This document shows positions 18,069 to 53,856 of a stretch of 53,856 nt of DNA, piece by piece. Position 1 is the stretch's first letter; the number at the start of each line of letters is the position of its first letter. Source of the stretch: Clostridia bacterium (GTDB lineage: Bacteria > Bacillota > Clostridia > UMGS1840); assembly GCA_017468465.1 (NCBI GenBank), contig JAFUIN010000015.1:1-53856 (forward strand), given 5' to 3'. The translations under genes and the position numbers were made by a program. The notes under the pieces are model-generated. The model had not been told where the DNA came from. It ran no database searches and saw nothing but the letters and a program-made list of their open reading frames with translations.

Positions 18069-18629
18069 TTATCTGATTTTTTCTTTTAGCATACTTGTGT
18101 TACAAATCAATGCTGTTACAATGGTGGTAATGATAATTTCGGGAATCATGTAGCTGCCGTTATAAATGAGAGAATATGCCAGCACGCTCTGACCTTCCTC
18201 TGCATAAACACCCCAAATTAAAATGCCGGAAAGAATATGGCACAGGTAGCGCAGCAGGGTAACAATAAAAGCAGAAAGGGGAGCGGAATATGCCTTTTTT
18301 CCGGTTATACGGAAGAAAAAGCCGGAAAGCCCCAGTATGCCGAATGCGAACAGATAGTCCAACAGTACCACCAAAACAAAGTAGCCAAAGGTTTGTGTCG
18401 GTGGCGGATAAAATCCGAATATCATTTGAATCAATGCATAGGCAAAGGATGCCGAAAGCCCCCATTTTACATCATACAAAATCCCTGCAAGCACAATGGG
18501 AACCATGGAGGCAATGGTGATGCTGCCACCTTGCAGCCACGGTGCGGGAATGATTTTGGATACCCACATCAACACCGTTGCCAAGGCGATGAGCAGGGCA
18601 CAGGTGGTTAGTTTTTTTGTTGTTGTCAT
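18069..18629 (-). CDS. thiT: thiamine transporter S component (ECF type)
   Basis: A 186-residue, six-helix membrane protein that binds thiamine and works with a shared ECF module not present in this window. Family signs: TTCALLIALATVLMWVSK at the start, YALIQMIFGFYPPPTQTFGY, LLDYLFAFGILGL and YLCHILSGILIWGVYA. The start at 18629 is chosen because the longer frame runs back through the riboswitch terminator. It has AAAGGAG upstream. A TPP riboswitch with an overlapping terminator precedes it, so uptake should be shut off when thiamine pyrophosphate is plentiful. Confidence 0.93.
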   Translation of the reverse strand: MTTTKKLTTCALLIALATVLMWVSKIIPAPWLQGGSITIASMVPIVLAGILYDVKWGLSASFAYALIQMIFGFYPPPTQTFGYFVLVVLLDYLFAFGILGLSGFFFRITGKKAYSAPLSAFIVTLLRYLCHILSGILIWGVYAEEGQSVLAYSLIYNGSYMIPEIIITTIVTALICNTSMLKEKIR

Positions 18630-18666
18630 TTCATTACTCCTTTCAATTTGAGAAAAGAATAATACC

Positions 18667-18698
18667 AATAAAAAATCCGAATCAAAAAGTGATTCGGA
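18667..18698 (-). terminator. TPP riboswitch expression-platform terminator
   Basis: TCCGAATCA/TGATTCGGA stem (18676-18684 with 18690-18698) followed on the minus strand by TTTTTTATT, between the aptamer and the thiT start. Confidence 0.88.
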
Positions 18699-18719
18699 CA
18701 AAAAGAAAACAATTATTTT

Positions 18720-18800
18720 CCCTACGTTGGCATTATCCAAATCAGGTTACGGGTCAAAGTGCAACACACTCACTCTCAGCCGACTTACGGTCAGCCCCCC
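18720..18800 (-). promoter_or_regulatory. TPP riboswitch (THI element)
   Basis: Read on the minus strand, the element has GGGGGGCTGA, CGGCTGAGAG, a P3-type region, GACCCGTAACCTGATTTGG and ATAATGCCAACGTAGGG. These are the conserved blocks of the TPP aptamer in order. With the following terminator it should stop transcription when TPP is bound. Confidence 0.95.
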
Positions 18801-18834
18801 AAATGTTAAATTGGTATTTCGAAATACAAAATGT

Positions 18835-49726: not shown

Positions 49727-50812
49727 ATGAAACGAATTGGAATTTTAACCGGTGGCGGTGATTGTCCGGGGCTGAATCCCGTAATTCGTGCAGTGGTAAA
49801 AACTGCAATCGGCAAATACGGTATGAGTGTGGTCGGCTTCAAAAACGGCTACAAAGGCTTGTACCATAACGAGACGGTAGAATTAACGTTAGAAAACACG
49901 TCAGGCATTTTACACAGAGGCGGTACCATTTTGTTCAGTTCCAATAAGGATAATTTGTTCGATTATCTCGTGCCGGATGAGAATGGAAATATGGTAAAGA
50001 AAGATGTTTCTCACGTTGGCGTGGAAAATATCAAGAAAAACAATATTGATGCTTTAATTATTATCGGTGGCGACGGCACTTTGACCAGCGGAAGAGATTT
50101 TGCTCGTTTGGGTGTTCCTGTTATCGGTGTTCCCAAAACGATTGATAACGACTTGTCTTCTACCGATACCACCTTCGGTTTTGATACGGCGGTAGGCGTT
50201 GCTGTGGAAGCGATTGACAGAATTCATACTACGGCAGAATCTCATCACAGAATTATCACAGTGGAAATTATGGGAAGATATGCAGGATTTTTAGGCCTTT
50301 CTGCCGGGATTGCCGGTGGTGCAGACGTTTGCTTAATTCCGGAAATTCCGTTTGATATCAATAAAGTTGCCGAACATATTAAGAAACGAATTGCACAGGG
50401 AAAAGAATTTTCTGTTGTTGCAGTTTCCGAAGGCGCAAAATCAATTACCGGTGAGGTTTGTGTTCAGAAGATTGTGGAAGGCAGTCCTGACCCTGTTCGC
50501 TTAGGTGGCATTGCACAGAAGGTTGCCGACGATCTGGAGGAGATGGTTGGGCTGGAAGCTCGTGCTACAATCCTTGGACATGTTCAGAGAGGCGGCACGC
50601 CGTCTTCTGCAGACAGAATTTTGTCTACCCGTTACGGCGTAGCTGCTGTGGAACTCGCTGTGGCAGGCAAGTTTGGAAATATGGTTGCTTTAAAAGATAA
50701 TCAAATGACGTATGTCTCTTTAGAAGATGTTATCGGCTGTAACAAAGCTGTTGACCCTGATGGAGAATTGGTTCAGGCTGCAAAAGCAATCGGAATCTGT
50801 TTTGGCGATTAA
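49727..50812 (+). CDS. pfkA: 6-phosphofructokinase
   Basis: 361 residues. ILTGGGDCPGLN opens the nucleotide site. GGDGT (Gly117) is the form used by ATP-dependent enzymes, where PPi-dependent ones have GGDDT. PKTIDND carries Lys137 in place of the usual Gly of classical PfkA (PGTIDND), a mark of the PPi-PFK-like and group III lineages. Gly117 with Lys137 occurs in ATP users such as trypanosomal PFK, so ATP is the likely donor. EIMGRYAGFLGL and the substrate motif GHVQRGGTPSS are present. The start has AAGGAG upstream. A repeated-type hairpin follows the stop. Confidence 0.94.
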   Translation: MKRIGILTGGGDCPGLNPVIRAVVKTAIGKYGMSVVGFKNGYKGLYHNETVELTLENTSGILHRGGTILFSSNKDNLFDYLVPDENGNMVKKDVSHVGVENIKKNNIDALIIIGGDGTLTSGRDFARLGVPVIGVPKTIDNDLSSTDTTFGFDTAVGVAVEAIDRIHTTAESHHRIITVEIMGRYAGFLGLSAGIAGGADVCLIPEIPFDINKVAEHIKKRIAQGKEFSVVAVSEGAKSITGEVCVQKIVEGSPDPVRLGGIAQKVADDLEEMVGLEARATILGHVQRGGTPSSADRILSTRYGVAAVELAVAGKFGNMVALKDNQMTYVSLEDVIGCNKAVDPDGELVQAAKAIGICFGD

Positions 50813-50922: not shown

Positions 50923-52140
50923 ATGAAAACTTTAGTAGAATTTTTTGATTCCTGTCAGTTGGTGAATATAATTGCCGGGATCAGTTGCAAACCGGAAACA
51001 ATTATATTTATTGGAGACCCTGACGTGATGAATTCAGCCCGTCGTGAAGCAGTGCAGCGTTTTTTTCGCATGCGAAAGCAAAAGGTAAAGCTGGAATATG
51101 TTGCAGTGAAGCTCCATTCATACGACGATATCTTGAAAAAAATAACCGGAATCATTGCAGGGCACCCGGATATTTGCTTTGACATAACCGGAGGCAGAGA
51201 GCTGGCGCTGGCGGCAATGGGAGAGGCAGCATGCTGTCATAACATTCCGATGATTCAATTTGATGTAATATCCGGGCAAATGATTCGGGTAAAAAATGCA
51301 GAAAAAATACCAATGCCGGAGGCTGTATCGGTCACCGTAAGAGAAAGTGTTATCCTAAACGGTGGTGAAATCATTGCTCCGGGTCTAACGATTTCTGCTG
51401 ACCGGTTGAATCTGTCTTTTTGCAAGGAAATTCGGGCATTGTTTTCCATCAGCAGGCAGAATCCGAAACTCTGGAATCAATTTGTGGTAGCATTGGAAGG
51501 TGTTGCAAATTCTGCCGGTCTTGGAAGGGATTTGCAGGTTTCTAAAAACATATCGAAGCTTCCTGAAAATCAGGTAAAAAAACTGCTTCAGGGTGGCTTT
51601 TTGAAACAACTTTCTGATGCCGGATTACTCCTTCACTATCAATATGAGAACGGGCTGCTGCAATTTCGGTATAAAAACGAAAGGGTTCACCAATGTCTGT
51701 CAAAGTCGGGGAGCATTCTGGAAATGTATGCTTATATGCTGTTGCACGAAATTTCACAAGAACAGCCAAACCTGTTTAGCGACAAGCGAATGGGCGTTCT
51801 GGCAGATTGGGATGGAGTGCTGACTCCCCGAAGCCACAGCGGAACCAAAAACGAAATTGACTTGATAGTGACAAAAAATGCTGTTCCGATTTTTATTTCC
51901 TGTAAATATGGAGAGGTGCTGAAAGAAGCTTTATACGAGCTGCACACTGTGGCGGAGCATTTTGGCGGAACATATGCAAAAAAGGTACTTCTGACTGCAG
52001 AGCTGAGCAGAATGCAGTCCAAAAAAAACAGCTTTTTGCAACGGGCCCGTGATATGCAAATTGAAGTGATTTATAATGTTCACCGTATGTCTGAGGATGA
52101 ATTAAAAGCAAGACTTTGTGCAATCGGCCACAGGCAGTGA
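50923..52140 (+). CDS. CARF-domain nuclease of the Card1/Can2 (DUF1887) type
   Basis: 405 residues. N-terminal CARF-like Rossmann domain (about 1-150) with IIFIGDPDV near the start and the ligand-loop motif DITGGRE (87-93), a central winged-helix-like part (about 170-265, LPENQVKKLLQGGFLKQL) and a C-terminal PD-(D/E)XK-like nuclease: Glu267 in LEMYAY, Asp313 in NEIDLIV and ISCK (Ser326-Cys327-Lys328), where canonical members have an acidic residue before x-Lys. Then LHTVAEHFGGTYAKKVLL follows. Card1 is activated by cyclic oligoadenylate from type III CRISPR. No cas gene or array is in the window, so it is an orphan here. ATG at 50923 has GGGAGA upstream. It probably shares the pfkA transcript. 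Confidence 0.85.
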   Translation: MKTLVEFFDSCQLVNIIAGISCKPETIIFIGDPDVMNSARREAVQRFFRMRKQKVKLEYVAVKLHSYDDILKKITGIIAGHPDICFDITGGRELALAAMGEAACCHNIPMIQFDVISGQMIRVKNAEKIPMPEAVSVTVRESVILNGGEIIAPGLTISADRLNLSFCKEIRALFSISRQNPKLWNQFVVALEGVANSAGLGRDLQVSKNISKLPENQVKKLLQGGFLKQLSDAGLLLHYQYENGLLQFRYKNERVHQCLSKSGSILEMYAYMLLHEISQEQPNLFSDKRMGVLADWDGVLTPRSHSGTKNEIDLIVTKNAVPIFISCKYGEVLKEALYELHTVAEHFGGTYAKKVLLTAELSRMQSKKNSFLQRARDMQIEVIYNVHRMSEDELKARLCAIGHRQ

Positions 52141-52309: not shown

Positions 52310-53856
52310 ATGTTTACAGCTTTAATTGAGAAGATTATCGGCACTTATTCCCAACGGGAACTGAAGCGGATTCAACCCCTGGTGGACAAGGTGCTTTCTT
52401 ATGAGGAAGAATACAGCAAATTAACTGACGATGAATTAAAAGCCAAAACGCCCGAATTCATTTCCCGTCTTGGTGAGGGTGAAACATTGGACGATATTTT
52501 ACCCGAAGCTTTTGCTACGGTAAGAGAGGCATCCTGGCGTGTAATTGGGTTAAAGCATTATCCGGTGCAGATTATCGGGGGGATTGTGCTTCATCAGGGC
52601 AGAATTGCCGAAATGAAAACCGGTGAAGGCAAAACTCTTGTTGCTACTTTACCGGCTTATCTGAACGCTTTGACCAAACGTGGCGTTCACATTGTCACCG
52701 TCAATGATTATCTTGCAAAACGCGACAGTGAGTGGATGGGAAAAGTATATCAGTTTCTCGGCTTAACGGTTGGTTTGGTGATTCACGATGTGGACCCCAA
52801 GGTTCGTGCTCAGGAATATGCCTGTGATATCACTTATGGCACCAATAACGAATTTGGGTTTGATTATCTTCGTGACAATATGGTCATCTATAAAGAGCAA
52901 ATGGTGCAAAGAGGTCATTACTTTGCCATTGTGGACGAAGTGGACAGTATCTTAATCGACGAAGCAAGAACACCGCTGATTATTTCCGGCGCCGGAGATA
53001 AATCCACCGATATTTATCAGTATGCTGACCGTTTTGTAAAAGGCTTGAAACGTAAAGTAATTATTGATGAAGACACCAAAATTCACATTGACGAAGAGGA
53101 TGCAGACTACATTGTTGACGAAAAAGCAAAAACTGCAAATCTGACTGCACAGGGTATCAAAAAAGCAGAACAGCATTTTAATATTGAAAATTTATCCGAC
53201 CCGGATAATTTAACCTTAACCCACCATATTAACCAGGCACTTCGTGCCAACGGGTTAATGCGTGTGGACCGTGATTATGTGGTAAAAGACGGTGAAATTA
53301 TCATTGTTGATGAATTTACCGGCCGTCTGATGTTCGGCAGAAGATATTCCGAAGGGCTTCATCAGGCCATTGAAGCTAAAGAAGGCGTAAAAGTGGAACG
53401 GGAATCCAAAACATTGGCAACCATTACCTTCCAGAACTATTTCCGCCTTTATGAAAAACTCTCCGGTATGACCGGTACTGCAAAAACAGAGGAAGAAGAA
53501 TTTCAGGAAATTTATAAGCTGGACTGTATTGAAATTCCTACCAATAAACCGCTTTTAAGAGAAGATGCGGCAGATTCGGTATACAAAACAGAAGCCGGCA
53601 AATACAAAGCAGTAATCGAAGAAATTGTGAAACGCCATGCAACCGGTCAGCCGGTTTTGGTTGGTACCGTTTCTATCGAGAAATCGGAAATGCTTTCTGC
53701 TATGTTAAAACGTCGTGGCGTAAAGCATGAAGTGCTGAATGCAAAAAATCATGATAAAGAAGCGCTTATTGTTGCACAGGCAGGGAAAAAAGATGCGGTC
53801 ACCATTGCTACCAATATGGCAGGTAGTGTGACTGATATTATGCTTGTCGGGAATGC
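52310..53856 (+). CDS. secA: preprotein translocase ATPase SecA, N-terminal part (cut by window end)
   Basis: The first 515 residues of the export motor. Walker A MKTGEGKT (102-109), [51 protein letters not shown] (Walker B), the preprotein-binding insertion at about 225-365 and [13 protein letters not shown] in NBD2 are all normal. The last motif reads [15 protein letters not shown], where SecA proteins have NMAGRGTDI and GGNA, so the arginine finger appears as Ser. These changes fall within the last 50 bases and may be sequence error at a contig end. The start has a weak ribosome site. No stop is reached. Confidence 0.95.

What the first reader, a model, noticed from the sequence alone, without database searches (positions are those of the whole stretch)
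50923..52140. Orphan Card1-like CARF-nuclease between pfkA and secA
The protein has the CARF, winged-helix and PD-(D/E)XK layout of Card1/Can2, effectors normally fired by cyclic oligoadenylate made by type III CRISPR complexes. I see no cas10, no CRISPR array and no ring nuclease within 50 kb. It sits among core genes and seems to share the pfkA transcript through a weak hairpin. If the position is conserved across relatives, the nuclease may answer a signal other than CRISPR, or serve as a house-kept abortive sensor.
Basis: partly seen in the sequence, partly recalled or inferred. Interest (0 to 1): 0.75.

Follow-up and report, generated by a model that had tools for sequence, protein, structure and literature searches.

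The report
Orphan CARF nuclease with rewired sites
This gut bacterium carries a gene for a signal-activated DNA/RNA-cutting enzyme of the kind normally fired by CRISPR alarm molecules, but neither it nor most of its relatives have the CRISPR machinery that makes the alarm, and the parts of the enzyme that read the signal and cut are altered in a consistent way, so what sets it off is an open, testable question.

Summary
Window 50923-52140 (+) encodes an intact 405-aa CARF / winged-helix-like / PD-(D/E)XK protein. Its AlphaFold model matches VC1899 (Z 32.8), Can2 (28.7) and Card1 (24.8) over its whole length. No RAMP, Csm1-type Cas10, Cas1, SMODS or mCpol gene was found in its genome.

Across 67 genomes carrying the family, type III genes are no commoner than in other Clostridia (9/67 against 34/211). 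The gene sits among unrelated genes and is under purifying selection (dN/dS about 0.16). It lies directly upstream of secA in three congeners; the pfkA neighbour is unique to this genome.

Two features stand out. All 67 homologs replace the catalytic ExK glutamate by serine and carry a glutamate in the next helix, like the migrated PD-XXK-E site of Cfr10I/NgoMIV. In most, the CARF signature Ser and Lys/Arg are acidic, which argues against ordinary cA4 binding.

One counter-example matters: relative L042 (41% identical) is the first gene of a type III-B Cmr1-6/CorA operon with an intact GGDD Cas10.

Best reading: a functional, mostly CRISPR-independent, ligand-gated defence nuclease whose ligand is not canonical cA4. 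Known kind, new variant; ligand unproven.

The parts
50923..52140 (+). orphan CARF-wHTH-PD-(D/E)XK nuclease gene, 405 aa (P0001)
   Evidence: translation; PADLOC CARF4--CARF_PDDEXK 1.4e-34; structure
50923..51333 (+). CARF (Rossmann-like) domain, aa 1-137
   Evidence: AlphaFold2 strands/helices and match to CARF domains of Csm6, Csa3, ring nucleases
50947..50949 (+). Asp9, at the position of Can2 Ser19 (cA4 contact); Asp in 57 of 65 homologs with a residue there
   Evidence: Can2 contacts from PMC7969007
51199..51201 (+). Glu93 of DITGGRE, at the position of Can2 Lys99 (cA4 contact; CARF signature K/R after strand 4); Glu/Asp in 52 of 66 homologs with a residue there
   Evidence: PMC7969007, PMC4012209
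51337..51702 (+). middle domain: helices and beta-hairpin, winged-helix-like, aa 139-260
   Evidence: DSSP of the model; equivalent insertion described for Can2/VC1899 (PMC7969007)
51712..52137 (+). PD-(D/E)XK nuclease domain, aa 264-405
51850..51861 (+). NEID motif: Glu311/Asp313 = catalytic Glu276/Asp278 of Can2; invariant in 67/67
51898..51906 (+). Ser326-Cys-Lys328: SxK in place of ExK; invariant in 67/67 homologs, 28 of them found without a bias to this motif
51937..51939 (+). Glu339 in the helix after SCK (Lys in Can2, VC1899, 8bao): candidate migrated catalytic Glu
   Evidence: PD-XXK-E precedent PMC551604
50821..50867 (+). strong hairpin between pfkA and the nuclease gene (terminator or attenuator)
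49727..50812 (+). pfkA (phosphofructokinase), upstream neighbour, not conserved there in congeners
52310..53854 (+). secA (5' part, runs off the contig), downstream neighbour, conserved in G003 and G004

Best explanation
The gene encodes a functional, ligand-gated dimeric nuclease that works like Card1/Can2: a small molecule binds across the CARF dimer and opens the PD-(D/E)XK active sites for non-specific DNA/RNA cutting, halting phage growth or the cell. It belongs to a Clostridia lineage kept mostly as a stand-alone chromosomal gene without a type III CRISPR system. Its active site is a PD-XXK-E variant (Glu311, Asp313, Ser326-x-Lys328, Glu339). Its CARF pocket has acidic residues (Asp9, Glu93) where Can2 has Ser19 and Lys99, so the trigger is most likely not canonical cA4. 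Candidates are an endogenous or infection-induced nucleotide, or a messenger with a positive charge such as SAM-AMP. Shown: fold, motifs, no type III, SMODS or mCpol gene detected in this genome, purifying selection, secA linkage in the genus. Inferred: activity, ligand gating, defence role, ligand class.
For: Full-length structural match to VC1899, Can2, Card1. All catalytic positions conserved in 67/67 homologs, with Ser326 paired to a helix Glu at 339 (49) or 336 (18); PD-XXK-E is an established working variant in Cfr10I/NgoMIV (PMC551604). dN/dS about 0.16 against G003. RAMP in 9 of 67 family-bearing genomes against 34 of 211 others, Fisher p 0.70. No SMODS in 32 family-bearing genomes, mCpol in one. 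Can2 Ser19/Lys99 correspond to Asp9/Glu93. Orphan VC1899, also with changed contacts, is not activated by cA4 (PMC7969007). A CARF domain can sense a ligand other than cOA: RtcR binds tRNA fragments (PMC7790460).
Against: L042, 41% identical and with the same acidic and SCK residues, is first gene of a Cmr1-6/CorA operon with an intact GGDD Cas10, so a Cas10 product may be the ligand. Arg92 next to Glu93 in this clade could take over from Can2 Lys99. The helix Glu switch 339 to 336 lies in one clade, so it is one evolutionary event, not repeated covariation. Five divergent members keep Arg/Lys at 93. No assay exists; absence of unknown synthases cannot be shown.
Confidence: 0.55

Rival explanations
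1. A type III effector acting in trans or in waiting: it is activated by a Cas10 product (cOA or SAM-AMP) when a type III system is present, and is retained between losses and gains of such systems.
For: In L042 the gene lies 23 nt upstream of cmr1 in a Cmr/CorA operon; rough chance expectation for such an adjacency among 33 loci about 0.01. G003 carries a type III-D locus with an AGDD Cas10. Can2 and Card1 are type III effectors (PMC7969007).
Against: No enrichment for type III genomes (9/67 against 34/211); only one physically linked case. G003's III-D locus has its own Csx20 and CARF/SAVED-like protein. Sites that contact cA4 in Can2 are changed, several of them to acidic residues.
Confidence: 0.25
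2. A degenerate leftover of a former CRISPR effector, as suggested for VC1899, kept without function.
For: VC1899 precedent and changed CARF residues; loss of the canonical ExK Glu.
Against: dN/dS about 0.16, intact frames, 67/67 conservation of Glu267, Glu311, Asp313, Lys328 and a helix Glu, conserved position upstream of secA in the genus.
Confidence: 0.1
3. A housekeeping regulator tied to secA or metabolism rather than a defence gene.
For: CARF-secA adjacency in G000, G003, G004; the surrounding genes are core genes.
Against: Patchy presence (32/243 class genomes), unrelated neighbours elsewhere, fast protein evolution (62% identity to G003 against 94% for SecA); secA exists without it, with an MFS gene in the slot in G001.
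Confidence: 0.1

Closest known systems
VC1899 (PDB 1XMX, DUF1887), orphan CARF nuclease of Vibrio cholerae
   Same: best structural match, Z 32.8 over 362 residues; no type III association; cA4 contact residues replaced (PMC7969007)
   Different: has ECK and Lys at 339; Arg at the 93 position; 17% identity; only weak, unregulated RNase activity reported
Can2 / Card1 (type III CRISPR ancillary nucleases, 7BDV, 6XL1)
   Same: same domain order, fold, NE(I/L)D and CK residues
   Different: they are type III linked and cA4-activated; here SCK plus helix Glu, Asp9/Glu93, and no type III locus found in the genome
PADLOC CARF4--CARF_PDDEXK profiles
   Same: full-length match E 1.4e-34: the family was already catalogued as CARF-PDDEXK
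   Different: the profile assigns no function, ligand or genetic partner
Cfr10I / NgoMIV type PD-XXK-E restriction enzymes
   Same: acidic residue of the ExK half-motif moved to another backbone position, Lys kept (PMC551604)
   Different: sequence-specific restriction enzymes without CARF; analogy of the active site only
RtcR (CARF-AAA+ regulator)
   Same: CARF domain outside CRISPR sensing a ligand other than cOA (PMC7790460)
   Different: transcription activator for RNA repair, no nuclease domain

Membership tests
CARF4 CARF-PDDEXK proteins (PADLOC profiles) | full-length profile match with CARF and PD-(D/E)XK domains | tested here: met
   (1.4e-34, residues 1-398)
DUF1887 / Can2-Card1 family | fold and domain order of Can2, Card1, VC1899 | tested here: met
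DUF1887 / Can2-Card1 family | match to a Pfam model of the family above its cut-off | tested here: not met
   no DUF1887 hit in Pfam at E up to 1
DUF1887 / Can2-Card1 family | catalytic NE(L/I)D plus ExK motif | tested here: not met
   NEID kept, ExK is SxK in 67/67
Type III CRISPR ancillary effector | type III (RAMP/Cas10) genes in the same genome | tested here: not met
   no RAMP and no Csm1 in G000, assembly 96% complete; met for 9 of 67 genomes with the family
Type III CRISPR ancillary effector | gene located in a type III operon | tested here: not met
   neighbours pfkA and secA; met only in relative L042
cA4-activated CARF nuclease | cA4-contact residues Ser19, Thr42, Lys99, Tyr118 of Can2 | tested here: not met
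   Asp9, Asp32, Glu93, Gln112; sequence alignment only
cA4-activated CARF nuclease | nuclease activity switched on by cyclic oligoadenylate | not testable with these tools
   needs purified protein
PD-XXK-E active-site variant | carboxylate relocated so that it reaches the same site in space | tested here: inconclusive

The most novel reading that the evidence does not exclude
A Clostridia-wide lineage of CARF nucleases is fired by a second messenger that is not made by a type III CRISPR complex and is not a canonical cyclic oligoadenylate, read by an acidic CARF pocket; type III systems such as that of L042 have recruited it because Cas10 can also make that messenger or a mimic (for example SAM-AMP).
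Probability: 0.3. Interest if true: 0.75.

Novelty: new variant of a known kind. Interest (0 to 1): 0.5.

Why it matters
Orphan CARF genes have been noted since 2014, but the only Can2-like orphan I found assayed (VC1899) looked nearly inert and was judged a possible relic. This lineage has many members, is under purifying selection, has a complete though rearranged active site and a consistently altered sensor pocket, so it is a good place to ask what CARF nucleases sense without CRISPR. L042 gives a direct bridge: the same protein type inside a Cmr/CorA operon narrows the ligands to try first.

Tried and rejected
Pfam and NCBIfam gave no family match. TIGR02578 alone is a poor test for cas10 (it missed the III-D Cas10 of G003), so RAMP (PF03787) was used as the type III marker. 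A first guess that Can2 Lys99 maps to Arg92 was wrong; both HMMER alignments put it at Glu93. I first took the acidic pocket as evidence against any Cas10 product; the Cmr-linked L042 with the same residues made me drop that strong form. The nominal 1e-16 chance for the 336/339 Glu pattern is rejected as a statistic because the K339/E336 proteins form one clade. Mobile carriage: no relative in viral contigs, plasmids or phages, at the sensitivity of those searches. Recurring partner genes: none among 116 neighbours of 33 loci, apart from the Cmr genes of L042. A fold absent from the VIA list is not taken as excluded. G002 gave no secA hit, so its site is unresolved.

Full report
What is there. 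The stretch 50923-52140 (+) is an intact 405-codon gene between pfkA (49727-50812) and secA (from 52310) at the end of a 53.9-kb contig of a 1.51-Mb assembly, 96% complete. Pfam and NCBIfam give no match, but PADLOC CARF4--CARF_PDDEXK models match end to end (E 1.4e-34). A profile of eight homologs finds Can2 (1.1e-15) and VC1899 (1.6e-12) among solved structures. The AlphaFold2 model (pLDDT 86.7, pTM 0.85) aligns over its whole length with VC1899 (Z 32.8), Can2 (28.7), Cdn1 (26.6) and Card1 (24.8).

Is it an orphan? In its own genome no RAMP, Csm1-type Cas10, Cas1, SMODS synthase or mCpol was found; the window has no CRISPR array. c-di-AMP synthase is present, as in nearly all relatives tested. 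In 243 genomes of the class, 32 have the family and 37 have type III RAMPs, with only G003, G074 and G210 in both. Adding 39 named genomes, four of them the same as class genomes, gives 9 type III genomes among 67 that carry the family, against 34 of 211 without it: no association. SMODS synthases are absent from all 32 tested, and mCpol occurs in one. The named MAGs were not filtered for completeness, so some absences may be missing sequence.

Context. In G003 and G004 the order is spo0A, (a LUD-domain gene in G004), the nuclease, secA, prfB, prfA; in G001 the same slot holds an MFS transporter; in the window pfkA lies upstream instead. prfB and prfA are named by eye from their sequences, not from a family search. 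So linkage to secA is conserved in the genus and linkage to pfkA is not. Elsewhere in Clostridia the gene sits among unrelated, mostly housekeeping genes, and no relative was found in phage, plasmid or viral-contig collections. A strong hairpin (-26.1 kcal/mol, z -5.0) separates pfkA from the gene, and no sigma-70-like promoter was seen between them.

Is it alive? Between this genome and G003 the gene has dN/dS about 0.16 (dN 0.27, dS 1.7, so dS is near saturation), against 0.04 for secA; protein identity is 62% against 94%. The frame is open in nearly every homolog read (the exception, L044, is a short contig-end piece with one stop). That speaks against a decaying leftover and fits a fast-evolving but selected protein, as defence genes often are.

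The active site. Can2 needs Glu276 and Asp278 (E276A/D278A is inactive; PMC7969007); they align with Glu311 and Asp313 of the NEID motif. Can2, VC1899 and 8bao then have E-C-K; all 67 homologs here have S-C-K, including the 28 sequences (P0001 and 27 others) from searches not keyed to that motif. At the start of the following helix, where Can2, VC1899 and 8bao have Lys at position 339, 49 homologs have Glu339 and the other 18 have Lys339 with Glu336, one helical turn away (8bao read). Relocation of the ExK acid to a neighbouring position with Lys retained (PD-XXK-E) is established in Cfr10I, NgoMIV and others (PMC551604). I infer an active nuclease with a migrated Glu. The 336/339 switch maps to one clade, so it is one event that then held through deep divergence, not many independent ones.

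The sensor. Four Can2 residues that bind cA4 and are shared with Can1 are Ser19, Thr42, Lys99 and Tyr118 (PMC7969007). By two HMMER alignments they fall on Asp9, Asp32, Glu93 and Gln112 here. Asp9 is Asp in 57 of the 65 homologs with a residue there; position 93 is Glu or Asp in 52 of 66. Position 93 corresponds to the CARF signature K/R after strand 4 (PMC4012209). The authors of the Can2 paper used the same kind of argument for VC1899, which cA4 did not activate. Cautions: Arg92 sits beside Glu93 in this clade, position 32 varies freely, and five divergent members (G047, G074, G085, G156, G239) keep Arg/Lys at 93.

The counter-example. In L042 (Clostridia bacterium RGIG1666, goat cecum; 41% identical, with Asp9, Asp92, Glu93 and SCK) the gene is followed after 23 nt by cmr1, cas10 with an intact AGGDD, cmr3, cmr4, cmr5, cmr6 and a CorA effector. 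Chance adjacency to a type III operon among 33 loci is roughly 0.01 by a crude estimate. L042 lies within the well-supported 15-member clade of the window protein. CorA type III-B systems signal with SAM-AMP (PMC10600005, PMC12255297), a messenger with a positive charge that an acidic pocket could suit. That is a hypothesis: whether this Cas10 makes SAM-AMP was not tested. In Clostridium botulinum a SAM-AMP lyase accompanies CorA; none was recognised among the L042 genes scanned.

Verdict. The protein works, by all sequence evidence, like Card1/Can2: a ligand-gated nuclease, probably defensive. It is a member of the CARF4 PD-(D/E)XK kind but departs from Can2/Card1 in its ExK residue, its cA4 contacts and its lack of a type III partner. 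The most likely state is a mostly CRISPR-independent effector lineage with a non-cA4 ligand; a type III effector in trans is the main rival. Activity, ligand and defence role are all inferred and need the bench. Orphan CARF genes as such are already known (PMC4012209, PMC7969007), which limits the novelty. The main classification paper of CARF families (Makarova 2020) was not held here, so I could not check whether it already describes this lineage.

Noticed in passing
L042:10001-18918: Type III-B Cmr1-6 operon with CorA and an intact GGDD Cas10, led by a CARF nuclease of this family; no NrN, DEDD or SAM-AMP lyase gene was recognised among the genes scanned.
   Followed up: partly
L031:6458-15763 (G003): Type III-D locus of a congener: Cas6, Cas10d with AGDD, fused Cas7/Cas5, Csx19, a Csx20 protein and a small CARF/SAVED-like protein.
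   Followed up: partly
L080:4905-6239 (G001): An MFS transporter gene occupies the slot upstream of secA that holds the CARF nuclease in other congeners.
   Followed up: yes
L032 (G047): Cas1 with a CRISPR-like array of 14 repeats in a genome that has a divergent member of the family but no RAMP genes.
   Followed up: no
window 18701-18811 (-): TPP riboswitch match upstream of the minus-strand ORF at 18069-18740.
   Followed up: no
L111 (G074:C66): mCpol-profile match of 28.7 bits inside a 630-aa frame next to RAMP genes, probably the Cas10 of that type III locus rather than a stand-alone mCpol.
   Followed up: no
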